Part shown: positions 2,154-54,258 of the stretch, piece after piece
Numbering within the stretch: the stretch's first letter is position 1
Layout: every line of letters begins with the position of its first letter
Source: a virus
IMG/VR virus record: IMGVR_UViG_3300042518_001688
Coordinates: 1 to 64,000 of that record
Direction: 5' to 3' (one strand)
DNA: 64,000 nucleotides
Notes under the pieces: model-generated
The model's database searches: none
What the model was told of the DNA's origin: nothing
The model's input: the letters and a program-made list of their open reading frames with translations, nothing else
Position numbers and translations under genes: made by a program

Positions 2154-2228
2154 CCAATGTTCGACTCGAATATTGGCGGACCCATTGGTAATTGAAGTGG
2201 TTATTTCAGTTACCAATGGGTTTGTTTC
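2154..2228 (+). terminator. Palindrome plus rho-independent terminator
   Basis: Two adjacent hairpins. The first is a near-perfect CCAAT-GTTCGACTCGAAT-ATTGG palindrome (2154-2176). The second is ACCCATTGGTAA (2180-2191) with TTACCAATGGGT (2210-2221), followed by TTGTTT. The second is a strong terminator. It means the following gene cannot start at the TTG at 2192, which lies in its loop. Confidence 0.8.
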
Positions 2229-2257
2229 CAGTGAGTCAACCCAATCCAATAGAGCCT

Positions 2258-3232
2258 ATGCAAGCAAACGGTGAATTCTATCCCGCCATCCTCTTGATTG
2301 AGGTTTGGTGGGTAGGTAAAGATCAGCCCGTCATGATGAGGGCTGCTGGGTTTGTACCTAATGGGTACGGCGATGCTTGGGTTCGCCAATGTAAAACCCA
2401 AGAGGAATTTGATAAGTGGCGTTCGCACTCTCTAGCACTTATCAAAAGGTTCAATGGTCGGGCTCTTGATGTTACTCAATGGCGACCTAGACAACCTGAA
2501 CCTATCCCAACCCCAGTAGTTGACATGGAATCAATTGCCAACAAAATAAAGAAACTGTTGGCATTATCCCAGTCACCTAACGAAGCGGAGGCGATCGCTG
2601 CTTCACAAAAAGCCCAGGAACTGTTGACCCGCCATAATTTATCAATGGCGGATTTAGCTGACTCCTCTCAAGAGGATGTTGAAAGGTACGAGCTAGAAAC
2701 CTTTTCCAAGTTCGTTGGATGGAAAAGTCACTTGGCTGCTGGCGTTGCTAAATACAACGTCTGCAAGTGTATCCTGTCTGAAATCGAGGGGAAAAGTATT
2801 GTATTCATTGGCAGGTCAAGTAATTGTAAAGTTGCTGCACTGCAATATGAATACCTTGCTTCTACCATTGACCGATTAGCTAAAGAGCAGGAAGGCGATC
2901 GCTCTTACAAGAATGCCTTTCGATTGGGTGCTGCCGACAGGATATCCAAGAGGCTGGAATACTTGCGGATAGAACAAGAAGAAGATGGGCTTGAGTCAGA
3001 TGATGGCAATATATCAGCCATTGTCATCACCTCTTTGCACAAAAGACTTGAGGGTGAGATAGATGCTTTTTACAAATCTTACCTGAAGTCAAATAAAATA
3101 ACGAGTCGCGCAGTCAGGGGATCGTCATACTCGTCAAGAGGTGGCTATGCTGCTGGCGATCGCGCCGGTCAATCAGTAAGTCTCAACAAACAAGTTGGGG
3201 CAGGTAATCAGAAACAGTTAGGAGGCAGATAA
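2258..3232 (+). CDS. DUF2786 domain protein
   Basis: The stretch SIANKIKKLLALSQSPNEAE and the following QKAQELLTRHNLS form a DUF2786 signature, at about residues 90-130 of this start. The family occurs in phage and bacterial proteins of unknown molecular role. The C-terminal third is charged and Ser/Gly-rich, ending in Gln/Gly-rich sequence. The frame extends 22 codons upstream through a terminator, so I start at the ATG of MQANGEFY. A conserved small gene follows directly with an AGGAGG-like site overlapping this stop. Function unknown. Confidence 0.75.
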   Translation: MQANGEFYPAILLIEVWWVGKDQPVMMRAAGFVPNGYGDAWVRQCKTQEEFDKWRSHSLALIKRFNGRALDVTQWRPRQPEPIPTPVVDMESIANKIKKLLALSQSPNEAEAIAASQKAQELLTRHNLSMADLADSSQEDVERYELETFSKFVGWKSHLAAGVAKYNVCKCILSEIEGKSIVFIGRSSNCKVAALQYEYLASTIDRLAKEQEGDRSYKNAFRLGAADRISKRLEYLRIEQEEDGLESDDGNISAIVITSLHKRLEGEIDAFYKSYLKSNKITSRAVRGSSYSSRGGYAAGDRAGQSVSLNKQVGAGNQKQLGGR

Positions 3233-4588: not shown

Positions 4589-5023
4589 ATGAAAGTATCT
4601 GAGTTACACCAATTAATCGGTCGCCCTGCTTTTAATATTGGCGATCGAGTTATCCACTCTTATGAAGTTGGTTGGGTATCCCACATCAACTTAAATCACG
4701 AAAAGAAACAGTACATCTATATGGTGGTAAACGAGGAAGGCGCGTACATCAATGGCACAGCAACAAATAGCGGGTTTTCTATCGAAGAAATCAAACCCGA
4801 TGAAGGAGAATTAGCCGATGTGTCTAATTGCTATCCTTGCCGATCGCTGTTTTTAAGAGCCTCTGGTAATCGCCCTGCTGTTAAAGTCAATAAATCATGT
4901 CATCTTGATTCAAGTAAGGATAGATGGATTTGCTGGTTGCTTGAGAACGGTGAATGGCAAATCAAAGGGGAGTTCAAAGATCCCGATGATGCGATCATGA
5001 TGGCTATGTCATACAGAAAATGA
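4589..5023 (+). CDS. Hypothetical protein, 144 aa
   Basis: No family is recognised. The reading frame opens at 4550 through the palindrome, but AGGAGA lies 9 bases before the ATG of MKVSELHQLI, which I take as the start. The N-terminal half resembles a small beta-rich fold around FNIGDRVIHSYEVGWV, as in SH3-like domains. Several Cys are present without a metal-site spacing. The stop overlaps the next ATG (ATGA), indicating coupling to the methylase-like gene. Confidence 0.7.
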   Translation: MKVSELHQLIGRPAFNIGDRVIHSYEVGWVSHINLNHEKKQYIYMVVNEEGAYINGTATNSGFSIEEIKPDEGELADVSNCYPCRSLFLRASGNRPAVKVNKSCHLDSSKDRWICWLLENGEWQIKGEFKDPDDAIMMAMSYRK

Positions 5024-7095
5024 ATCTGACAAATAGAGAGTATTTGGAGGCAGCGATCGCCTCTATCAAAATCCTCCGCAAACAATCCCCCTTAACGGAA
5101 CAAGAAAGGGGGATTTTGCTTGCATTCCCTGGGGGTGGCATCCTCAAGGAGTGCGGGGTTTTCACCGACGACGATAAACCCCGTTGGTTAGTTGAGGGTC
5201 GGGAGGAGTTGCGATCGCTCCTCACCAATGAAGAATGGGAAGGGATACAGAATAGTGGGATGCAAAACTCCCACTACACCTTACCCCAAATACGTCAAGC
5301 TATGTGGGAGGCACTACTGCCATTAATAGAAGATCCTTGTGTTCTCAGGGTGCTTGATCCTGGATGTGGTACGGCTGGTTTTCTTTGGGATATGCCCAAT
5401 GATGACCGACTCACGTATTACGGCATTGACAAGGACGTTTTGCCTGTTGCGATCGCCCGGAAAGCGATAGGCAAAAGCAAGCACCAACTGGTAAAGCAGG
5501 ATTTCTTGCAACATGATCCCATGTTTCCTTATGGTGCTGCCATCGGCAATGTTCCGTTTGTTAATGGCGTTAACTCAATGGTGTTAGAGGGCAAGAAATT
5601 GGGTATTGCTATTCATGCCCAATTCTTCATTAAGTCCGTCCAGTTACTAGCACCTGGCGCACCTCTAATGTTCCTCACCTCAACTACGACACTTGATGCT
5701 AGGGGTGAGGATTACGTCTGGTTTCGCCGATGGTTGCACAGAAAATGTGAGTTCATCGGTGCGTTGAGATTACCTGCGGATGCCGTTCATCATGGCAACA
5801 CTCAGGTAACAACTGATTTGATTATCCTTCGTCGTCGCAAGGGTAAGGATTGCAATGAACCCGATACTAATTGGATTGAAGTGGTGGAAAGTGATTTGAT
5901 TAATCCCCACTACAACATCCCTGTGTTGTACAACCAATGGTTCATTGATAATCCCTGGTGTTTGTTAGGCGATCGCACTATTTCCAAAGTGCGAGGTAAA
6001 AACGGCAATCCTACCAATTGCCTTGCAATTCAATCTCGTCCAAATTTCGCAAAAGAATTGCGTGAGTCCTTAGCAAAACTCACGCATCAAAACAACGTAT
6101 CTAACAAGGAGAATCATATCATGGCTACATTAATCCCTGCTGATAAGTTCCAGTCTTATTCCGTTTTCTCTTTCATTCTCAGAGAGAATCCAAAACAACA
6201 AGGGGTTGAGATTCATTTCCCCCCTGAGTATGTAGCGGAAAGCGATGCTGAAAAAACCCTGTTAGAGCAAATTAAGTCTAAGGGGCTTGTCGCTGCTAAG
6301 TCTAATCCTTCGTTGTTCTACATCAAGCCCCGAACATCGGAAGAACACGCTCAACTAATGGCATATATGCGTAAGAAGGTAGCAGCTTGTTCTAAGTGGG
6401 GGGCTTGTGAATTAGATGCCGACACACCTGTGGAAGAAATTAAGCCGCGCCGTCGCTGGGGAGGCAACAAGGAAAACAAGCCCGTTGAACCTGTCGCTAC
6501 TCCTACGTCTGCTCCCATTGTGGATGCGATCGCCCAACGACTACAGCCGATGTTCGATGAATTGGCTAGTAAAATCCAAGTTCCTGCTGCTGACCCCAAA
6601 GAGTTGCAGGAGGCACAAGCGAAACTTACTGACTACCTGCACAGGTGGCAGAAGGATCAAGAAACTTTTAAGACGTTAAAATCGGAGGTGGATGTCTTTG
6701 TTGGTCTTAACGAAGAATTGAAAAGAGACAATGAGGATTTGCGATCGCAGCTTGCAGATGTTACCGCAAAAATCGTTGAACTCAATGGCACGGTTCATGA
6801 GTTACAAACGGAATTGAAAGAAACCAGGGAAGCTGATATAGAACTCATGAGGCAAGTTGAATCCTTGCAAGAAAAAAACGAGGGATTGCGATCGCAACTT
6901 GCAGAGTTTGGTGTTGGTGTAACCCAACAACCCGAACCTGACCTGGTTGACGATGAACCTGACTTGCAGGATGAACCTGACTTGCAGGATGAACCTGACT
7001 TGAGTGACGACGAAGACCTCCCCTCTGCATTCCAACCCCAATCATCTGATGACGATGATGAAGATGGCTTCAACATAGCGTTACTGGGGGAGTAA
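5020..7095 (+). CDS. N6-adenine methylase-like protein with coiled-coil and acidic tail
   Basis: Residues about 110-290 form a class I SAM-dependent methyltransferase: motif I is LDPGCGTAGF (residue 112 on) and a motif-IV-like AIGNVPF lies near 170. The N-VPF variant is typical of methylase domains that accompany very large phage/plasmid SNF2-like helicases, and such a helicase lies 4.3 kb downstream. From Met368 (base 6121) a second block starts, then a Gln/Glu/Leu coiled coil (about 525-640) and an acidic tail with three EPDL repeats. AAGGAG precedes Met368, so a shorter internal product or an ancient fusion is plausible. DNA-modification activity is inferred. Confidence 0.75.
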   Translation: MNLTNREYLEAAIASIKILRKQSPLTEQERGILLAFPGGGILKECGVFTDDDKPRWLVEGREELRSLLTNEEWEGIQNSGMQNSHYTLPQIRQAMWEALLPLIEDPCVLRVLDPGCGTAGFLWDMPNDDRLTYYGIDKDVLPVAIARKAIGKSKHQLVKQDFLQHDPMFPYGAAIGNVPFVNGVNSMVLEGKKLGIAIHAQFFIKSVQLLAPGAPLMFLTSTTTLDARGEDYVWFRRWLHRKCEFIGALRLPADAVHHGNTQVTTDLIILRRRKGKDCNEPDTNWIEVVESDLINPHYNIPVLYNQWFIDNPWCLLGDRTISKVRGKNGNPTNCLAIQSRPNFAKELRESLAKLTHQNNVSNKENHIMATLIPADKFQSYSVFSFILRENPKQQGVEIHFPPEYVAESDAEKTLLEQIKSKGLVAAKSNPSLFYIKPRTSEEHAQLMAYMRKKVAACSKWGACELDADTPVEEIKPRRRWGGNKENKPVEPVATPTSAPIVDAIAQRLQPMFDELASKIQVPAADPKELQEAQAKLTDYLHRWQKDQETFKTLKSEVDVFVGLNEELKRDNEDLRSQLADVTAKIVELNGTVHELQTELKETREADIELMRQVESLQEKNEGLRSQLAEFGVGVTQQPEPDLVDDEPDLQDEPDLQDEPDLSDDEDLPSAFQPQSSDDDDEDGFNIALLGE
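6946..7008 (+). repeat. 18-bp tandem repeat coding EPDLQD units
   Basis: GATGAACCTGACTTGCAG-like units occur in tandem near the 3' end of the methylase-like gene and encode an acidic repeat. Such repeats expand and contract by slippage. Confidence 0.8.
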
Positions 7096-9672: not shown

Positions 9673-10092
9673 ATGGAAATCAAAGCCAAGTACGTCACTA
9701 ATAAGTACATTGACATCTTTGTAGAGGGTGTCACCCCATCAGATACCCACTGGGGAGGGGTGAAAGCTATGCTTGAGGGTGCAAAATTCAAGTTAGAAGG
9801 ATTTGCCTACCGCCGCACATTCGACAACCCCACTGAGTTTAGTAAGTGGTTAAGACATACCAGATCATTAACTACTAAATTCGGTGGTACTGAACCAGAG
9901 GAAATAGTAGACCCACTGCAAAATCTCATGGACATGATTGCCGAGTTCGAGTCCCGGTTCGATGAAATGAACCAGGAGGTATCTGTCCTAAAAAAGTTCG
10001 ACATCTCCGCGCAGGAGAGATTGAACAGCTTGAAGCAGCAATTAGAGCAACAACCGGACAAAAAGCCCCCAGCAAGAAGAAAGAAAAAATAA
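9673..10092 (+). CDS. Zero-frame product of a frameshifting gene pair, 139 aa
   Basis: CAGGAG precedes the ATG of MEIKAKYVTN, chosen over an earlier in-frame ATG that lies inside a terminator. About 60 residues of mixed fold are followed by a helical, coiled-coil-like segment and a Lys/Arg tail (RRKKK). At Lys107-Lys108 the message carries A AAA AAG in the correct phase with AGGAGG 10 bases upstream. A fraction of ribosomes should therefore shift to -1 and continue into the next gene, giving a 566-residue fusion. Function unknown. Confidence 0.75.
   Translation: MEIKAKYVTNKYIDIFVEGVTPSDTHWGGVKAMLEGAKFKLEGFAYRRTFDNPTEFSKWLRHTRSLTTKFGGTEPEEIVDPLQNLMDMIAEFESRFDEMNQEVSVLKKFDISAQERLNSLKQQLEQQPDKKPPARRKKK
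9974..10018 (+). promoter_or_regulatory. Programmed -1 ribosomal frameshift signal
   Basis: AGGAGG (9974-9979), a 10-base spacer, then the slippery heptamer A AAA AAG (9990-9996) in zero-frame phase. A TCTCC/GGAGA stem-loop (10004-10018) follows 7 bases downstream. Order and spacing match the E. coli dnaX signal. The -1 frame is open from the heptamer through to the next gene. All elements are read directly; efficiency is unknown. Confidence 0.8.
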
Positions 10093-10133
10093 TCCCCGAC
10101 ACATTCACCCCAACCGTCAAGTTCCTGGATGAG

Positions 10134-11372
10134 ATGGGGTCGGACAATTTCATTGATATTGACTCTCGCCCTGACCTTGAGTGGGCTAAACGTCATAAAG
10201 GGGGTATCTACACTTTCCATCGAGGTCAACTGGGTATCGCATTCAACGTTCCCCGCAACTTGTGGTGGCAAATTCCCAAAGAATGCTATTTGGGGAGTAT
10301 TGATGATATCCCTCGTTACGTGGAGATTCACGAAGAGGGTTATCTTCCCTGCGTGTGGCGTGATGGGGAACACCGATTCGTCTATGCTAACCAGTTCTTT
10401 CCGGTGTATGCACCGGACAACCAACTGGTTGTTATGGACAAGTTATTACGGATTGCCTCTATTACCGAGCGATTAATAGAGGCAGAATCCACAGAACAGG
10501 ACGACACCCATTGCACCTATCTCCGTAATGGGTTAAACGAGTTGTATTCCGACTTCGTGACCAATTACGGTGCTATCCGCAACTATCAAGTTTACTGGGA
10601 CAATGACCTCTGGTGTGACATGAGGTTAGAGACGTATATCACTAACCTAGTTGATGGGTACGGCAAACTTGCCGACATCTTCACCAAAAGAACCAAGTTC
10701 CCACCTTCTGACCCCGTTGGGCAACAGTTCTTTCAAGATTCAATTCCTGACAGAGTTGAGTCTGCATTGTCTTGGTGTATGGCTTGGTTGGGTAAAGTTG
10801 ATGTTCCTCAAATAGCAGAAAAAGCAGGTGTTGATGAGGCGATCGCTCTGGAAATCCTGCTAGAAAATGAACTGGTTTACCGAGTTCCTGAAGTTGTTGA
10901 GCCTCAGTGGTGGGAAGTATTAGGGGTTGATAAAGATATTGACTCTGATTACCAACTCACGACTGCATGGAAGGAACAGCGCGAGGATGATATTACCTTT
11001 GCACTGACTCTCGATGAGGCATACAAGAAAGCCTTGCCGATAGTTACCTCCCGGTTGCCTTATCCCGACTGGGAGGAAACAGAGGAGGTGGTTATCCTGC
11101 ATCATGCAGGTGGTACTTATACCTATCAAAAAGTACCCTGCAAGTCCGCTCACGGGTACAGCATTGGCACTGTACCCAAAGACTTCAAAGAAAGGTCAAA
11201 AACGGAAACACCTGTGTTCCTGATGAAAGAGGACATAATCGGGGTTTTCGCCAACGAAACCAAGGCTATTCGATGCCTGATTGAATTATCTAGGCATCCA
11301 AAGGCATACATCCACTCTATTGATATGCAAGTCATTATCAAGTTCTATGGCTTGTCTGCACACTGGCATTAA
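10134..11372 (+). CDS. Large unknown protein, probable -1 frame extension
   Basis: There are 412 codons from the first ATG, which has no Shine-Dalgarno sequence. The frame is open 46 codons further upstream, back to the slippery site, so the main product is probably a fusion with the preceding coiled-coil protein. No family is recognised. It is Trp- and acid-rich and soluble. A segment near residues 225-245 (IAEKAGVDEAIALEILLEN) resembles a helix-turn-helix. It is followed after 21 bases by the large helicase gene with its own AGGAG, suggesting joint expression. Confidence 0.7.
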   Translation: MGSDNFIDIDSRPDLEWAKRHKGGIYTFHRGQLGIAFNVPRNLWWQIPKECYLGSIDDIPRYVEIHEEGYLPCVWRDGEHRFVYANQFFPVYAPDNQLVVMDKLLRIASITERLIEAESTEQDDTHCTYLRNGLNELYSDFVTNYGAIRNYQVYWDNDLWCDMRLETYITNLVDGYGKLADIFTKRTKFPPSDPVGQQFFQDSIPDRVESALSWCMAWLGKVDVPQIAEKAGVDEAIALEILLENELVYRVPEVVEPQWWEVLGVDKDIDSDYQLTTAWKEQREDDITFALTLDEAYKKALPIVTSRLPYPDWEETEEVVILHHAGGTYTYQKVPCKSAHGYSIGTVPKDFKERSKTETPVFLMKEDIIGVFANETKAIRCLIELSRHPKAYIHSIDMQVIIKFYGLSAHWH

Positions 11373-11393: not shown

Positions 11394-14300
11394 ATGGCTT
11401 ATCAAGATAAACGTACATTTTTGAGTGGTGACTTAGGCGAGAAATTAGAAAGGGTTAGAAGAGTAGTAGAAATAGATCCATCTTTTAAAAGAGAAGAGGA
11501 AGCGATCGCTAACGCTATCCCCAAACAAATACCTATTGAGTTGATTGACCTTTCCCCTGGTACGCAATGGATACCCACTACAACTTATGAAGAATTTATC
11601 TTGGAAACCTTTGGGGTTGAATGCAAGCTATTCTTCTCCCCCACTATGGGAGTATGGGACATTGTTGTCACAGATAACAAAGCACTAAAGAGTGAAAATA
11701 ATCCCCACGTCGAAGTTACCAAGAGAGAGAAGGGTGAAGACTATCAAGCGTGGGTTTATGCGATCGCTGAATCCATCAACAATGGTATTTTCACTTCTAT
11801 GTTCCACTTTAAATCCCCACCTGGGATTCAGTATGATACTGACAAGCAAGTTGTCAGAGCAAAGCAGGATGAACTCACGGATACTTTTGTTAAATGGTGC
11901 AGGAAAAATAAAGGTGAGGAACTGCAAAAACTGTATAACCGCAGATTTAATAGTGCGGTAATTCCTAACTGGGATAATTCAGCACCTAAGAACCTGAAGG
12001 AAATATTAAAAACTGCTGGTATGACTGGCAGGTTAAACGGTGTTAAAAAGTTTATTGATGTCTTTGTCCAAGAAGACGGAAGTGTTGTACAAGAAGAACG
12101 GATTGTAGAGGATGGGGTGCTATGGGTAGATGCGCTTCGCCCTTACCAGTTGGATGCAATATGGCGCATGGCTACCCAACCCTGCAACGGATTGTTAGGG
12201 CTGGAGGTAGGGTTAGGTAAAACCGCCTGTGGTATTGCCACTGCTATGTTGAGAAGGTATCTGAAAACCAGCAACTTGACGATGGTTGTGGTGCAAAAAT
12301 CCACCCTGCTCCAATTCGATAAAACCTTTCGGGAGATGTTTCCCAACGCCAAGGTTCTATGCGCCAAGAGTAATGACATGAATCAAAAATCAAGGCAATC
12401 GTTCTTGGCGAAGGCTGTCCTGTGGGAATGGGACGCAATCATCCTAACTCATGATAATTTTCAAGCAATTCCGGTGCGATCGGAAACAAATCGGGTTTAT
12501 ATCCAAAGAAAACTCGATTTGATTGAGTGGGAGATGACATCTATTGAATCATCTGGTGAAGTGTCCTATAAAACCAAGGGGAGGAGAGGTAACTACGTCC
12601 TCAAAAGGCTAGAGGCGGAAAGGGATAAGCTCAACAACGATTTATTAAAGTTAGAAAAGGACAGAGACGGTGGTATCCGCTTTGAGGATATTAACCCCTC
12701 GCTATTAATAGTAGACGAGGCGCAGAAGTACAAGAACAATCACTATGCCTCAAAAATCCAAGCCAAGGGGATTGGTGGTTCTCAATCCAATATGGCTCAA
12801 GACCTGGATATAAAGTTAGGGTTCTTGCGAGAAACCCGTGATAACCCTAACTTCCTGTTATTTATGACAGGAACGCCCGAACCCACCAATTCAATTGCGG
12901 GGGTGTATGTTTACCAGATGTATTTACACCCTGAAGAGTTGGAGAAACGAGGTATCAAACATTTTGACGCTTGGGCGCATCAGTTTGGTAAAGTTGTAAC
13001 TCGTGCCGAATACTCCCCGTCAGGGGGATTTGTGGAAACCACAAGGTTCTGCAAGTTTGTGAATATGCCTGAGTTATCGCTAATGTACAAGATGTCGCTC
13101 CACTACAAGCGATACTACCATGTGCAAGGTCAAGCAGGGTTCAAAAGACCAGAACCAAAAGAAATGAGGGTATCTTCACCGCTAACTGACTTCCAGATAC
13201 GTAGGATGGATCAGCTTTGCGATCGCTACAATGCACTCAAAATCGGCGTTCCTCTCAGATTCCCTGATCGGGACAACAGGGACGGGTGCTTGATTTACCA
13301 AGAAAGAGACTCAGAAGGCAAGAAGATAGGTAAACCGCAACGACTATACCATCCAGGGACGACTAACCCCATCAAGGATGAAAATGTTGCTAGTGATTAC
13401 GGACTTGTTTGGAGCGATCGCCCCGACGGGTATCTTGATGTCTATAACGAAATGCGGCGGTTAATGATTGCCCCGCAGTTTGAAGACCTTGATGAAGTCG
13501 TATTCAGTACCGATAAGATTGCTAAATGTGCCAGAAATATCTACCGGATATGGAAGGCAACAAAGAAAAGGCAAAGCACTCAGTTAGTATTCTTGGACAT
13601 GGGTGCGCCTAACGGTGGTTGCAAATTCCAAGCCTATCAATGGTTAAAAGAGCGATTAGTTGAATATGGGATACCCAAGGGAGAAATTGCCTTTATTCAA
13701 TCGGCAAAAACTGACCAAGCAAAAGCCGACTTATTCGATAAGGTTAACGCTGGTGAGGTTAGGGTACTAATCGGACACCGTGAGTCTATGGGTGTTGGGG
13801 TCAATGTCCAGAAGAAAGTTGTCGCCATGCACATGGTAGACATCCCATTCCGTCCTGACCAGAATGAGCAAGCGATCGGTAGAGGTATCAGGGATGGCAA
13901 CGAGAACGAGAAGGTTCTCATTCTCTGGTATATTTACCGCGCCAAAAAAGGCAGTAGTCAATGTAGTGCTGATACTGCATCAATGGATCTATTAGCCATT
14001 AAAGCTAAACAGCAATTCCAAGTTCTTGACGGTGACGCTACCGCTAGAGAGGTAGAGGAAGAAGACCATAAGAGTGCCGCTTACGCTGCTTTATCAGCCT
14101 ACGCCACTGGCGACCCAAGGCACATGGAATTGGCTAACTTGAAATCTGACATAGTTGGTGTATACGCCAAACATCGGTTGCTGGAAACCGAAACCATTGA
14201 CTTGAGAATTAATTTGTCTTCAACCCAAGAGCGTATCAAGAGCATGACCAGGAAACATGAGTTCTTACTTCCTGATGTGAATAGTGTAGAGACTAACAAA

Positions 14301-14909
14301 CATCGGTACTTCTCCGACAACCACTTTGCAATAGTGATTCATTCCAGAGGTGGGATACCAATGCTGTACGCTGGTTTCCAGAAGGGTTCTGAGTCCTTCG
14401 AGTTGGATGTACTGGAAAAAGTGGATAGGTGTGTTATTCGATATGAAGATGAGAAAGCTGTTAATACTCGACTAAGTATTGGGCAATCTCAGGAACGCGC
14501 ACGATTGGCATTACGGGGTAATATTTCCGACTTAGAAATGAAATATCAGGACACACCCATGCCTCAAATCCCAATTACAACAATTGGTTCTATTGGTGGT
14601 ATGCCCATCTTGTATCGAGCAAGAATTGGCTTGTTCTTGCAGGGATACGACCAAAACTACGAGATTAGTAGGGGGGAAACGGTAGTTCTCAAGAATATCA
14701 TAGGGGCATACTTGGGTATCCCCCAAAGACAACAGGCGATCGCTGACAACATCAAAAAAGCAGAAGATTCTATCGCCCCAATGAGCAAGGATCTTAATGA
14801 AAAATCACTCAGAAAGAGTGAAATAGCCAGGGAGTTGGAGGAAATGGAGTTCCGTAAAGCCCAACTTGAACGGGAGTTACATCCCAAAAAGGATGCTCCT
14901 ATTGAGTAA
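11394..14909 (+). CDS. Giant SNF2-like superfamily 2 helicase
   Basis: A complete DEAD-like/SNF2-like motor. Walker A is GLGKT (about residues 273-277), motif II is IVDEAQKYKN (about 437-446) and motif III is MTGTPEPT (about 490-497). Motif V/VI is SMGVGVNVQ and QAIGRGIRDG (about 800-835). N- and C-terminal extensions of about 260 and 330 residues surround the core, the last part being coiled-coil. In related phage and plasmid proteins a methylase domain is often fused to this helicase; here the methylase-like protein is encoded separately at 5020. A DNA remodelling or protection role on entry is inferred. AGGAGAAAATATC precedes the ATG. Confidence 0.85.
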   Translation: MAYQDKRTFLSGDLGEKLERVRRVVEIDPSFKREEEAIANAIPKQIPIELIDLSPGTQWIPTTTYEEFILETFGVECKLFFSPTMGVWDIVVTDNKALKSENNPHVEVTKREKGEDYQAWVYAIAESINNGIFTSMFHFKSPPGIQYDTDKQVVRAKQDELTDTFVKWCRKNKGEELQKLYNRRFNSAVIPNWDNSAPKNLKEILKTAGMTGRLNGVKKFIDVFVQEDGSVVQEERIVEDGVLWVDALRPYQLDAIWRMATQPCNGLLGLEVGLGKTACGIATAMLRRYLKTSNLTMVVVQKSTLLQFDKTFREMFPNAKVLCAKSNDMNQKSRQSFLAKAVLWEWDAIILTHDNFQAIPVRSETNRVYIQRKLDLIEWEMTSIESSGEVSYKTKGRRGNYVLKRLEAERDKLNNDLLKLEKDRDGGIRFEDINPSLLIVDEAQKYKNNHYASKIQAKGIGGSQSNMAQDLDIKLGFLRETRDNPNFLLFMTGTPEPTNSIAGVYVYQMYLHPEELEKRGIKHFDAWAHQFGKVVTRAEYSPSGGFVETTRFCKFVNMPELSLMYKMSLHYKRYYHVQGQAGFKRPEPKEMRVSSPLTDFQIRRMDQLCDRYNALKIGVPLRFPDRDNRDGCLIYQERDSEGKKIGKPQRLYHPGTTNPIKDENVASDYGLVWSDRPDGYLDVYNEMRRLMIAPQFEDLDEVVFSTDKIAKCARNIYRIWKATKKRQSTQLVFLDMGAPNGGCKFQAYQWLKERLVEYGIPKGEIAFIQSAKTDQAKADLFDKVNAGEVRVLIGHRESMGVGVNVQKKVVAMHMVDIPFRPDQNEQAIGRGIRDGNENEKVLILWYIYRAKKGSSQCSADTASMDLLAIKAKQQFQVLDGDATAREVEEEDHKSAAYAALSAYATGDPRHMELANLKSDIVGVYAKHRLLETETIDLRINLSSTQERIKSMTRKHEFLLPDVNSVETNKHRYFSDNHFAIVIHSRGGIPMLYAGFQKGSESFELDVLEKVDRCVIRYEDEKAVNTRLSIGQSQERARLALRGNISDLEMKYQDTPMPQIPITTIGSIGGMPILYRARIGLFLQGYDQNYEISRGETVVLKNIIGAYLGIPQRQQAIADNIKKAEDSIAPMSKDLNEKSLRKSEIARELEEMEFRKAQLERELHPKKDAPIE

Positions 14910-18438: not shown

Positions 18439-18604
18439 AGCGATCACACTAGCAATAAATAGGCGATCGCTTAATTATTTATTTTTTCTTCTGATAAGTT
18501 TGTCTCTCTGGCGCGTGATTTTTGTGGGCTTCGCAATATGGATAGATTGCGTCGCTTCTTAAACCAGGATTACACACAAGGCAGTTCATACTAGCTGCTA
18601 TTTC
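18439..18604 (-). repeat. 166-bp duplicated segment, copy 1
   Basis: About 90 percent identical to 19959-20124. It spans the C-terminal zinc-finger codons of a gene plus its downstream flank, so it is a segmental duplication or gene conversion between two neighbouring genes. Confidence 0.9.
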
Positions 18605-19958: not shown

Positions 19959-20124
19959 AGCGATCGCACTAGCAATAAATAGGCGATCGCTTAATTATTT
20001 ATTTTTTCTTCTGATAAGCTTGTCTCTCTGGCGCGTGATTTTTGTGGACTTCGCAATATGGATAAATTGCGTCGCTTCTTAAATTAGAATTGCACACAAG
20101 GCAGTTCATACTAGCTGCTATTTC
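19959..20124 (-). repeat. 166-bp duplicated segment, copy 2
   Basis: Partner of 18439-18604 at an offset of 1520 bases. It covers the zinc-finger tail of the Csx3-like gene and its downstream flank. Confidence 0.9.
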
Positions 20125-40417: not shown

Positions 40418-41569
40418 TTAACTTCTTAATTGTACGGGCATGGCTAAATAAGTCATTTTCAATCCACCCACAGGTGTAAAAATAACTGGGGTTAAACTCT
40501 GATTTAAGTGCATTTGAATTTCTGAAGATGGTAATTCTTTTAACCCTTCCATGAGATATTTGACATTTAAAGCAATGTCTATATTTCCTCCAGATATTTG
40601 GGCTGGCATTGATTCTGTGCCACTACCAACATCTTGAGCTTCACAAGATAGGGTTATTTCTTGATTTCCGTTATCAATGCTGAGTTTGACAATATTATTT
40701 TTCTGGTCTGCTAACACTGCAATTCGTTCTAAGGTGCTGATAAATCGCTTTTTTTCTAATGTAACTTGGCGTTCAAATTGGCGAGGAATTAATTGCCGAT
40801 AGGCGGGATATTGTTCTTCTAAGGTGCGGCTGGTTAACCGTTGATTTTGCCAAGCAAATGCTACTTGTCCTTGATCTAAATATACGGCTACCGTTTCTTC
40901 TGAATTGGCGTGTTGGACTAACATCCGTTGTAGTTCTCGTAATGCTTTGGCTGGTACTGTGACTTCTAACTGTTCGCTACCCTTTACAGGACGTTCATTT
41001 GTGGTTTCTAACACTGCTAAACGGTGTCCGTCGGTGGCCGCAAATTCTAAGGTGTCTTGTTTGAGGGTTAAATGTACACCGGTGAGGACTTGCTTGGTTT
41101 CATCGGAACTGGTGGCAAATAAAGAACCTTTTAAACCCTCAATTAGTGCCGCAGTTGTGAGGTGAATTGCTTCGGCATTTTCCATAATTGGTAATTCGGG
41201 AAATTCTTCTGCACCCATAGCCCGAACTTGATACTTGCCGCTTCTAGGTTTGAGGGTAACAATTATACCTTCTCCTCCTGCATCGCCAGAGGCATCATCA
41301 AGGGTAATTTCCCCTTCTGGTAAGCGTGAGGTGATGTCTACCAGGAGTTTGGCAGGGAGGGCAATTTCTCCACCTTCTAATACTTCGGCTGTAAAACTGG
41401 TACAGATACCTAAACTGAGGTCAAAGGCGGACAAACTAACTTGGCTAGTATTAGCGTCTGCCTTTAATAAGATGTTAGCCAGGACTGGGTGAGTTGGTCT
41501 AGATGGGACTGCACGACTGACTAGGGAAAGGTTACTGCTGAGATCCGATTGAGAACAGGTTATTTTCAT
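40418..41569 (-). CDS. dnaN: DNA polymerase III sliding clamp (beta)
   Basis: 383 residues, full length for DnaN, with three clamp repeats. Landmarks are MKITCSQSDLSSNLSLVSRA at the start, TRPILANIL-type VLANILLKA, RLPEGEITL, EEFPELPIM and the C-terminal VGGLKMTYLAMPVQLRS. The ring tethers the replicative polymerase. No polymerase gene is in the window, so it may serve a host or outside-window polymerase. It lies in one minus-strand block with SSB. Confidence 0.93.
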   Translation of the reverse strand: MKITCSQSDLSSNLSLVSRAVPSRPTHPVLANILLKADANTSQVSLSAFDLSLGICTSFTAEVLEGGEIALPAKLLVDITSRLPEGEITLDDASGDAGGEGIIVTLKPRSGKYQVRAMGAEEFPELPIMENAEAIHLTTAALIEGLKGSLFATSSDETKQVLTGVHLTLKQDTLEFAATDGHRLAVLETTNERPVKGSEQLEVTVPAKALRELQRMLVQHANSEETVAVYLDQGQVAFAWQNQRLTSRTLEEQYPAYRQLIPRQFERQVTLEKKRFISTLERIAVLADQKNNIVKLSIDNGNQEITLSCEAQDVGSGTESMPAQISGGNIDIALNVKYLMEGLKELPSSEIQMHLNQSLTPVIFTPVGGLKMTYLAMPVQLRS

Positions 41570-46512: not shown

Positions 46513-47169
46513 ATGAAAATATCACTACTCTCCCAAAAAGGGGGTGTCGGTAAAACCACGCTGTCAATCCACCTGTGTCACGCTCTGTCGCTCAAAGGGT
46601 TTAACCCAATTTTGATAGACAGCGATCCTCAAGGATCTTCCTTGGACTGGTCATTAAGGAGGCAAGGGGAAAGATTGTTTCCAGTGGTTGCACTTGACCG
46701 CCCCATTATCCATAAAGAGTTACCCAGTTTAATGAGGAGTTACAATTTTGCCGTAATTGATGGTGCGCCCAGGTTATCTAGCTTGACTCGCTCGGCAATC
46801 ATGGCATCTGACCTGATTGTTATTCCTGTACAGCCCAGTCCCTTGGACGTTTGGGCGATACATGAAGTTATTGAGCTTATCAAGGAAATACCAGAGGATA
46901 TCCTGAATGAAAACCTAAAAACTGTGTTTTTGGTTTCTCGGAAAATCGTGAATACTGCGATCGCTAGAGATTTCCTGGAGGTGTTAGCTACCTACGATAT
47001 TCCTATCCTCAACTCACAAATTGCTCAACGGGTTGTGTTTGCCGAAAGCCTTGCTTCAGGTAGCACGGTTTTAGAAGTAGCACCATTCACTCAAGCAGCT
47101 AATGAAATTAGACAACTTTGTAAGGAGATATTGACGTATGGCGACGAAGAAAGTGCCAATCACGATTAG
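46513..47169 (+). CDS. parA: ParA partition ATPase
   Basis: MKISLLSQKGGVGKTTLSIH is the deviant Walker A at the very N-terminus, so this is the short (type Ib, ParF-like) class. DSDPQGSSLDW and VIDGAPR follow. 218 residues is normal. It drives partition of low-copy plasmids or plasmid prophages. The start lies about 6 bases from the promoter -10, so the message is nearly leaderless. It overlaps the partner gene by 32 bases. Confidence 0.9.
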   Translation: MKISLLSQKGGVGKTTLSIHLCHALSLKGFNPILIDSDPQGSSLDWSLRRQGERLFPVVALDRPIIHKELPSLMRSYNFAVIDGAPRLSSLTRSAIMASDLIVIPVQPSPLDVWAIHEVIELIKEIPEDILNENLKTVFLVSRKIVNTAIARDFLEVLATYDIPILNSQIAQRVVFAESLASGSTVLEVAPFTQAANEIRQLCKEILTYGDEESANHD

Positions 47170-53412: not shown

Positions 53413-54258
53413 CTAAATTGCTTCAATTACAGATGGATACCACTTTAACGATGTCACAGATTTATTGTGTCCTTTGGCTGTATCCATGACAGTTTGAGAA
53501 TATCCTTTACCTTCCTCTGTTGGCTTCCAAGCGGGTTCACTTCCATTCGGGTTTTTAAATTGTAAACCTTTATCTACTAGGAGTTTGTTCATCTTTTGCG
53601 CTGACAATTTAATGCCAGTTTTAGCTTCGTATAGTTCTGCTAGTTTTCCATGTCTAACTAACTCGTCTTCGATGGGGATACTTAACAACTTCTTGGCTTC
53701 TTCCATTGCAGGTGCAAGCTCCGGGTAAATCTTGGAGAAATAATTAGCCTTAACACCAGCAATTAATCTGGAGTCTGTTCCTGTAGGTATCAAAACCAAG
53801 TCAATAGCAGTAGCACTTGCTTGTAAGTAAAGAGGGTTGCTTAGTTCTTGGTTTATTTGCTCCACTTGCTTGGGTTCTTGTCTTTTCCATCCTGTCTGTT
53901 GTTGTATCCAAGACCGGACACCAATACCAGTAAAAGCAGTGTCAACCATTTCCGCTTGTTTCTTGCATCTTTGTCCAGCTTTATAAGCGTAGTATTTGGC
54001 TATGATCGCGATCGCTAAATCAGGAATACCATTTTCAGTCCAAAACAAAATCCCACCAGCATCAAAGCCTTGCTCTGTAAGCAGTGCAACCAATTTACTA
54101 GGAGAAATCCCACCAGCAGTTTTAAGCGATTCCAGTAAACTTGTATGATCAACATCCATCAACCTAGCAACTGCACGAATTGACGCTTTACCTTTTCCGG
54201 TTGCATCAACAGAGATTTCATTTTTGATCTGATCAACGATTAATGCTAAATTAGTCAT
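53413..54258 (-). CDS. Antirepressor-like protein (KilA-C/Ant type)
   Basis: An HTH-like N-terminus (KASIRAVARLMDVDHTSLLE) and a C-terminal third (LAELYEAKTGIKLSAQKMNK, LLVDKGLQFKNPN, GYSQTVMDTAKGH) fit phage antirepressors with a KilA-C-like end. It would free early genes by inactivating a repressor or compete for operators. The leader includes a GCTGGCA-like element. Upstream lies a divergent Phd-like gene. Confidence 0.65.
   Translation of the reverse strand: MTNLALIVDQIKNEISVDATGKGKASIRAVARLMDVDHTSLLESLKTAGGISPSKLVALLTEQGFDAGGILFWTENGIPDLAIAIIAKYYAYKAGQRCKKQAEMVDTAFTGIGVRSWIQQQTGWKRQEPKQVEQINQELSNPLYLQASATAIDLVLIPTGTDSRLIAGVKANYFSKIYPELAPAMEEAKKLLSIPIEDELVRHGKLAELYEAKTGIKLSAQKMNKLLVDKGLQFKNPNGSEPAWKPTEEGKGYSQTVMDTAKGHNKSVTSLKWYPSVIEAI

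What the first reader, a model, noticed from the sequence alone, without database searches (positions are those of the whole stretch)
9673..11372. Textbook programmed -1 frameshift joining two genes
AGGAGG, a 10-base spacer, A AAA AAG in zero-frame phase and a stem-loop 7 bases later reproduce the dnaX frameshift signal. The -1 frame is open for 46 codons up to the next gene, whose own ATG lacks a ribosome binding site. The result would be a 139-residue protein plus a 566-residue fusion in a fixed ratio. Neither product belongs to a family I know, and this is not the usual tail-chaperone case.
Basis: partly seen in the sequence, partly recalled or inferred. Interest (0 to 1): 0.85.

Follow-up and report, generated by a model that had tools for sequence, protein, structure and literature searches.

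The report
Conserved frameshift in cyanophage methylase-helicase module
In a virus of bloom-forming cyanobacteria, a stretch of messenger RNA is built to make ribosomes slip back one letter, so that one gene yields a short protein and a longer fused one; four other viral or cyanobacterial sequences keep the same signal, and the long form carries the piece that normally sits between the DNA-methylating and DNA-motor halves of a virus anti-restriction protein.

Summary
The signal is real: AGGAGG (9974-9979), 10-nt spacer, in-phase A_AAA_AAG (9990-9996), and a -1 frame open from 9966 through ORF2. Comparison makes it well supported. Four divergent homologous loci (three in Nostocaceae genomes, one of these a circular 119-kb phage element; one more viral contig) keep the two-frame layout, AGGAGG 13 nt before A_AAA_AAG, and an invariant TAAAAAAGTTCGA. 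Homology in the -1 frame starts at the heptamer. Between two of them, heptamer-to-stop is 60/61 identical against 78-82% around it (dual coding), and the start-less -1 stretch after the stop shows third-position divergence (23 of 29). The hairpin is not conserved. ORF2 is not an orphan: its middle is co-linear with the segment between methyltransferase and SNF2 helicase of DarB-like giant proteins; those two domains are separate genes here (5020-7095, 11394-14909), whereas 77 of 79 relatives hold both in one frame (the other two are cut contigs). Best reading: SD-driven programmed -1 frameshifting (dnaX/IS3 type) makes ORF1 (139 aa) and ORF1-ORF2 (566 aa), two forms of the middle subunit of a split methylase-helicase machine. 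No expression data; ratio and function are inferred.

The parts
9673..10092 (+). ORF1, zero-frame product (139 aa): small alpha/beta domain (1-75) plus one long helix (81-125) that contains the slip site
   Evidence: homologues in A6; AlphaFold2 mean pLDDT 86
9974..9979 (+). AGGAGG, internal Shine-Dalgarno frameshift stimulator, 10 nt before the heptamer (13 nt in the four homologues)
   Evidence: 9-14 nt is the working range given in PMC5009743
9990..9996 (+). A AAA AAG slippery heptamer in zero-frame phase (inside invariant TAAAAAAGTTCGA, 9989-10001)
9997..10025 (+). predicted hairpin TTCGA-CA-TCTCC-GCGCA-GGAGA-GA-TTGAA; possible extra stimulator in this phage only
   Evidence: z -2.6; no counterpart in the homologues
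9997..10092 (+). dual-coding overlap: zero frame FDISAQERL..., -1 frame VRHLRAGEIEQLE...
   Evidence: codon scores; both frames conserved in homologues; 60/61 nt identity from heptamer to stop between L181 and L182
9996..11372 (+). -1 frame extension (458 residues after the slip): ORF2, equivalent to the segment between MTase and SNF2 helicase in DarB-like proteins; C-terminal part is J-domain-like but lacks HPD
   Evidence: DnaJ domain in homologue L177
10134..10136 (+). first ATG of the ORF2 frame, without a Shine-Dalgarno match longer than 3 nt; probably not the start
   Evidence: -1 frame is conserved protein upstream of it
5020..7095 (+). DarB-like adenine methyltransferase subunit with a C-terminal coiled-coil-rich region (split dyad, first piece)
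   Evidence: PHROG 10089 E 2e-42
11394..14909 (+). SNF2-type helicase/translocase subunit (split dyad, last piece), 21 nt after ORF2
   Evidence: PHROG 10089 E 1e-140; SNF2-rel_dom, Helicase_C

Best explanation
Programmed -1 ribosomal frameshifting. Ribosomes translating ORF1 pair AGGAGG with 16S rRNA while decoding A_AAA_AAG; a fraction slips to AAA_AAA and continues in the -1 frame. The rest end ORF1 at 10092 (139 aa); the slipped ones make a 566-aa ORF1-ORF2 fusion. The slip lies inside a long helix, and both frames can continue that helix, so both products keep the same N-terminal domain and coil, and only the long one carries ORF2. ORF2 is the segment that in other phages sits between the adenine methyltransferase and the SNF2 helicase of one giant DarB-like polypeptide. 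Here that machine is split into three genes, and the two forms of the middle subunit probably set how it assembles. Shown by sequence: signal, phase, conservation, dual coding, co-linearity with DarB-like proteins. Inferred: that slippage occurs and how often, that the pieces form a complex, and that the complex protects phage DNA from restriction.
For: Signal in correct phase and spacing. Rare by chance. -1 frame has coding codon usage before ORF2's ATG. ORF1 homologues in 3 of 218 Nostocaceae genomes, and in each the -1-frame ORF2 homology begins at fusion residue 106-107, next to the slip codon 108; same heptamer and SD at 13 nt. A further IMG/VR contig L182 is the same. TAAAAAAGTTCGA invariant in all five. 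L181 vs L182: heptamer to stop 60/61 identical, flanks 78-82% (P about 3e-5); in the 164 nt between the zero-frame stop and the first possible -1 start, 23 of 29 differences fall at the third codon position of the -1 frame (P 5e-7). ORF2 aligns with the MTase-helicase inter-domain segment. ORF1 model: alpha/beta domain plus long helix through the slip site; -1 segment also predicted helical.
Against: No expression or proteome data. The hairpin is not conserved, so the stimulator set outside this phage is weaker than in dnaX. Only five loci are known and two pairs are related (L176/L182; L177/L178), so there are about three independent lineages. L178's helicase is broken and L177 lacks the MTase catalytic part in the stretch read, so not every copy need be active. 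Complex formation and the anti-restriction role rest on homology only.
Confidence: 0.87

Rival explanations
1. Two separate overlapping genes: ORF2 starts at ATG 10134 by reinitiation or translational coupling after the ORF1 stop (42 nt upstream), and the heptamer and SD are incidental.
For: An ATG exists at 10134; many genes of this phage have weak SD sites; the zero-frame stop is near.
Against: -1 frame is conserved protein from the heptamer on, upstream of any start codon (KKVR.LR..EI); in L176/L181 no start for 225 nt and third-position divergence there; heptamer and SD invariant while the spacer between them diverges.
Confidence: 0.06
2. RNA polymerase slippage on the A6 run, rather than ribosomal slippage, produces the mRNAs that encode the fusion.
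For: An A6 run is present in all loci; transcriptional slippage is a known alternative (for example Thermus dnaX, PMC5009743).
Against: Documented bacterial slippage runs are of about 9 A or T (PMC5009743), while here the run stays at six followed by G in every locus; conservation of AGGAGG at 10 or 13 nt, inside the 9-14 nt range for -1 ribosomal shifts, has no role in transcriptional slippage.
Confidence: 0.04
3. A broken gene: ORF1-ORF2 was one frame and a one-base indel (mutation or assembly error) split it.
For: A homopolymer is where such errors fall.
Against: Same frame relation in five loci from different assemblies; both frames under constraint between heptamer and zero-frame stop; a second IMG/VR contig is identical over 17 kb.
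Confidence: 0.01

Closest known systems
E. coli dnaX -1 frameshift (gamma/tau)
   Same: A_AAA_AAG heptamer, upstream SD stimulator, two products sharing an N-terminus
   Different: In dnaX the shift gives the SHORT product; here it gives the LONG one. Downstream hairpin only in the window phage. Unrelated proteins.
IS3-family transposase (OrfA/OrfAB) frameshift
   Same: A -1 shift, often SD-stimulated, fuses a short upstream protein to a downstream ORF that lacks its own start
   Different: No transposase; payload is a methylase-helicase inter-domain segment
Phage tail assembly chaperone frameshift (lambda gpG/gpGT)
   Same: Phage gene, -1 shift near the end of a short ORF, short and long form
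   Different: Neighbours are a DNA methyltransferase and an SNF2 helicase, not tape measure or tail tube genes
DarB-like DNA methylase-helicase dyad of polyvalent phage proteins (PMC5512222)
   Same: MTase, inter-domain segment and SNF2 helicase, related families and same order
   Different: Three separate genes instead of one giant polypeptide, extra N-terminal ORF1 domain, middle piece reached only by frameshift

Membership tests
Programmed -1 ribosomal frameshift, SD-stimulated A_AAA_AAG class | Slippery heptamer in zero-frame phase | tested here: met
   five loci
Programmed -1 ribosomal frameshift, SD-stimulated A_AAA_AAG class | SD-like stimulator 9-14 nt upstream | tested here: met
   10 nt in the window, 13 nt in four homologues; range from PMC5009743
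Programmed -1 ribosomal frameshift, SD-stimulated A_AAA_AAG class | Downstream hairpin or pseudoknot | tested here: inconclusive
   window z -2.6; homologues z about 0
Programmed -1 ribosomal frameshift, SD-stimulated A_AAA_AAG class | -1 frame conserved across the shift point without its own start | tested here: met
Programmed -1 ribosomal frameshift, SD-stimulated A_AAA_AAG class | Both products made | not testable with these tools
   needs reporter assay or proteomics
DarB-like methylase-helicase dyad | Related adenine MTase and SNF2 helicase | tested here: met
DarB-like methylase-helicase dyad | MTase and helicase fused in one polypeptide | tested here: not met
   three separate genes in the window; one ORF holds both in 77 of 79 relatives, the other two (L059, L072) are cut contigs
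DarB-like methylase-helicase dyad | Inter-domain segment between MTase and helicase | tested here: met
   co-linear; aligned
DarB-like methylase-helicase dyad | N-terminal LPD36 domain | not tested
   no model at hand
DarB-like methylase-helicase dyad | Protects phage DNA against restriction | not testable with these tools
   inferred from P1 DarB (PMC5512222)
Tail assembly chaperone | Located before tape measure gene, tail genes as neighbours | tested here: not met
   neighbours are MTase and SNF2 helicase

The most novel reading that the evidence does not exclude
A split DarB-like methylase-helicase machine whose assembly is set by frameshifting, like gamma/tau in the clamp loader: the short form supplies docking/coil subunits, the long form brings in the linker (with a J-domain in some elements) that joins methylase to translocase. 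This would be the first programmed frameshift in a phage DNA-modification/anti-restriction system that we know of.
Probability: 0.4. Interest if true: 0.75.

Novelty: new variant of a known kind. Interest (0 to 1): 0.62.

Why it matters
The conserved programmed frameshifts of tailed phages named in the papers read are mainly in tail-chaperone genes. This one lies in a DNA modification/translocation module, recurs in elements with different capsids, and shows that a giant polyvalent protein can be replaced by a multi-gene version in which recoding supplies one joint. It makes a concrete prediction (a junction peptide and a ratio) and shows that automatic annotation would miss the true start of ORF2.

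Tried and rejected
Pfam and PHROGs on ORF1/ORF2 gave nothing significant; only co-linearity with PHROG 10089 hinted at the dyad. Nucleotide and protein searches of phages and plasmids with ORF2 found nothing close. IMG/VR scans with ORF2, helicase, capsid, beta clamp and tail proteins returned only the identical contig or nothing. Sampled phylum and order searches found no further ORF2; the only phylum-wide ORF1 hit covers just residues 70-132, the helix. Conserved hairpin: tested and rejected. Foldseek of the ORF2 and ORF1 models gave no significant match. Paralogy of ORF1 with window ORF 2192-3232 is only suggestive (E 3e-4 to 0.16), though clear in L176/L177. The missing ribosome site as evidence was downgraded.

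Full report
Observation. ORF1 runs 9673-10092. AGGAGG lies at 9974-9979, then ten bases, then AAAAAAG at 9990-9996, read CTA AAA AAG in ORF1. The -1 frame is open from 9966 to the stop at 11372; its first ATG is at 10134. The window is part of an 83,408-base virus record; another IMG/VR contig is identical over 17,374 bases.

Chance. In 1.83 Mb of this and related sequence, no other in-phase A_AAA_AAG had an SD at 7-14 nt together with a -1 frame that extends past the zero-frame stop. Keeping the ORF1 protein and redrawing codons gives heptamer plus SD in 1.3% of cases. The -1 frame between heptamer and ORF2's ATG scores 10.2 bits over 46 codons, within the range of true genes (21st percentile) and above all 11 open off-frame stretches of the same phase; over the overlap it scores better than the zero frame (8.1 against 2.2).

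Conservation. No close relative was found among sequenced phages. A search of 218 Nostocaceae genomes with ORF1 found three (L176, L177, L178). tblastn of the fusion on each shows ORF1 in one frame and ORF2 in the -1 frame, the latter starting at fusion residue 106 or 107; the slip codon is residue 108. Each has A_AAA_AAG in phase with AGGAGG 13 nt upstream. An alignment-based scan of IMG/VR added L182 and the viral copy of L176 (L181). The bases TAAAAAAGTTCGA are invariant in all five, giving LKKFD in the zero frame and KKVR in the -1 frame; both tails are conserved further.

Dual coding. L181 and L182 differ at 18% of sites before the SD, 32% in the SD and spacer, 2% from heptamer to zero-frame stop (60/61 identical including the heptamer), and 20-22% after it. 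After the stop and before the first possible start codon of L181's -1 frame (164 nt), 23 of 29 differences are at third positions of the -1 frame. Binomial probabilities are 3e-5 and 5e-7. So the -1 frame is under protein constraint where no standard initiation is possible, and the overlap is constrained in both frames. A repeat of the test on independent lineages was not possible: L176/L182 and L177/L178 are related pairs.

Stimulators. The spacing of 10 or 13 nt lies within the 9-14 nt for -1 shifts given in the review PMC5009743. The hairpin in the window (-11.5 kcal/mol) has no counterpart with significant stability in the other four. The SD and heptamer are therefore the conserved signal; the hairpin may add to it in this phage.

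What the proteins are. MTase 5020-7095 and helicase 11394-14909 match PHROG 10089 (DarB-like antirestriction). In Mwe-JY07, Atu_ph08 and BKO1-TP3, ORF2's core (fusion residues about 258-407) aligns between MTase and helicase. Of 79 IMG/VR relatives, 77 have MTase and helicase in one reading frame; L059 and L072 are contig ends in which no MTase is seen. An alignment of 16 sequences supports the segment. The literature calls this the DNA methylase-helicase dyad of polyvalent proteins (PMC5512222). In the window and its homologues it is split. In L178 ORF2 runs in frame into the helicase N-terminus, but that helicase lacks its middle and is broken. In L177 ORF2 ends in a DnaJ domain (E 1.6e-7); the window's equivalent lacks the HPD motif (own reading).

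ORF1. AlphaFold2 with five sequences gives a confident small alpha/beta domain and one helix from 81 to 125 (mean pLDDT 86). The slip site, residue 108, is inside that helix; the first 22 residues of the -1 frame are also predicted helical, in a lower-confidence model. The N-terminal domain recurs: a gene just after ORF2 in L176 carries it in frame with DUF2786 and DUF7168, and L177 has another copy. This suggests a docking module attached to several payloads, once by frameshift.

Setting. G480's contig 29 (L176) is 119,490 bases with a 243-base terminal repeat, so probably a circular element, and encodes portal, protease and major head proteins. The window's capsid protein has no match in it. 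The module therefore sits in phages with different capsids.

Mechanism and limits. Most likely ribosomes slip on A_AAA_AAG with help of the internal SD, giving a short docking/coil protein and a long fusion. Analogy with dnaX and with IS3 OrfAB suggests stoichiometric control of an assembly. That step is inferred. Literature searches found no report of a frameshift in such a module, but the library is partial, and one prediction paper (PMC10885494) mentions methyltransferases in general among phage genes known to contain frameshifts.

Noticed in passing
40418-41569 (-): Phage-borne DNA polymerase beta clamp 93% identical to Cuspidothrix issatschenkoi DnaN and about 90% to Aphanizomenon/Dolichospermum: a recent host gene capture, and a pointer to the host.
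   Followed up: partly
46513-47169: ParA-type ATPase by eye; with the circular 119-kb relative in a Nostocaceae genome this suggests a phage-plasmid lifestyle.
   Followed up: partly
L177 8272-9639 (-), residues 297-347: J-domain (PF00226) at the end of the ORF2 homologue; the window copy (ORF2 'WWEVLGVDKDIDSDYQL...') has no HPD motif.
   Followed up: partly
L176 8244-9221 (-); window 2192-3232; L177 7947-8360 (-): ORF1-like N-terminal domain in other genes, fused in frame to DUF2786/DUF7168 in L176; a recurring docking-type module.
   Followed up: partly
1748, 4550, 32716 and L008:18683: Several unrelated ORFs begin with the same N-terminus MFDSII/MFDSIM; could be a shared leader or repeated upstream element.
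   Followed up: no
window 1-23848 and record end: G000 (83.4 kb) and IMGVR 3300033979_000663 (77.7 kb) appear to overlap at both ends, implying a circular genome of about 125 kb; the beta clamp was not found in the second contig.
   Followed up: partly
18439-18604 and 19959-20124: 166-bp direct repeat, 95% identical.
   Followed up: no
53413-54258 (-) and L008 1887-2729 (-): Two closely similar ~280-aa proteins, paralogues about 12 kb apart.
   Followed up: no
L178 (G508:C9): Helicase gene interrupted and missing its middle (residues about 264-563): decaying copy or assembly fault.
   Followed up: partly
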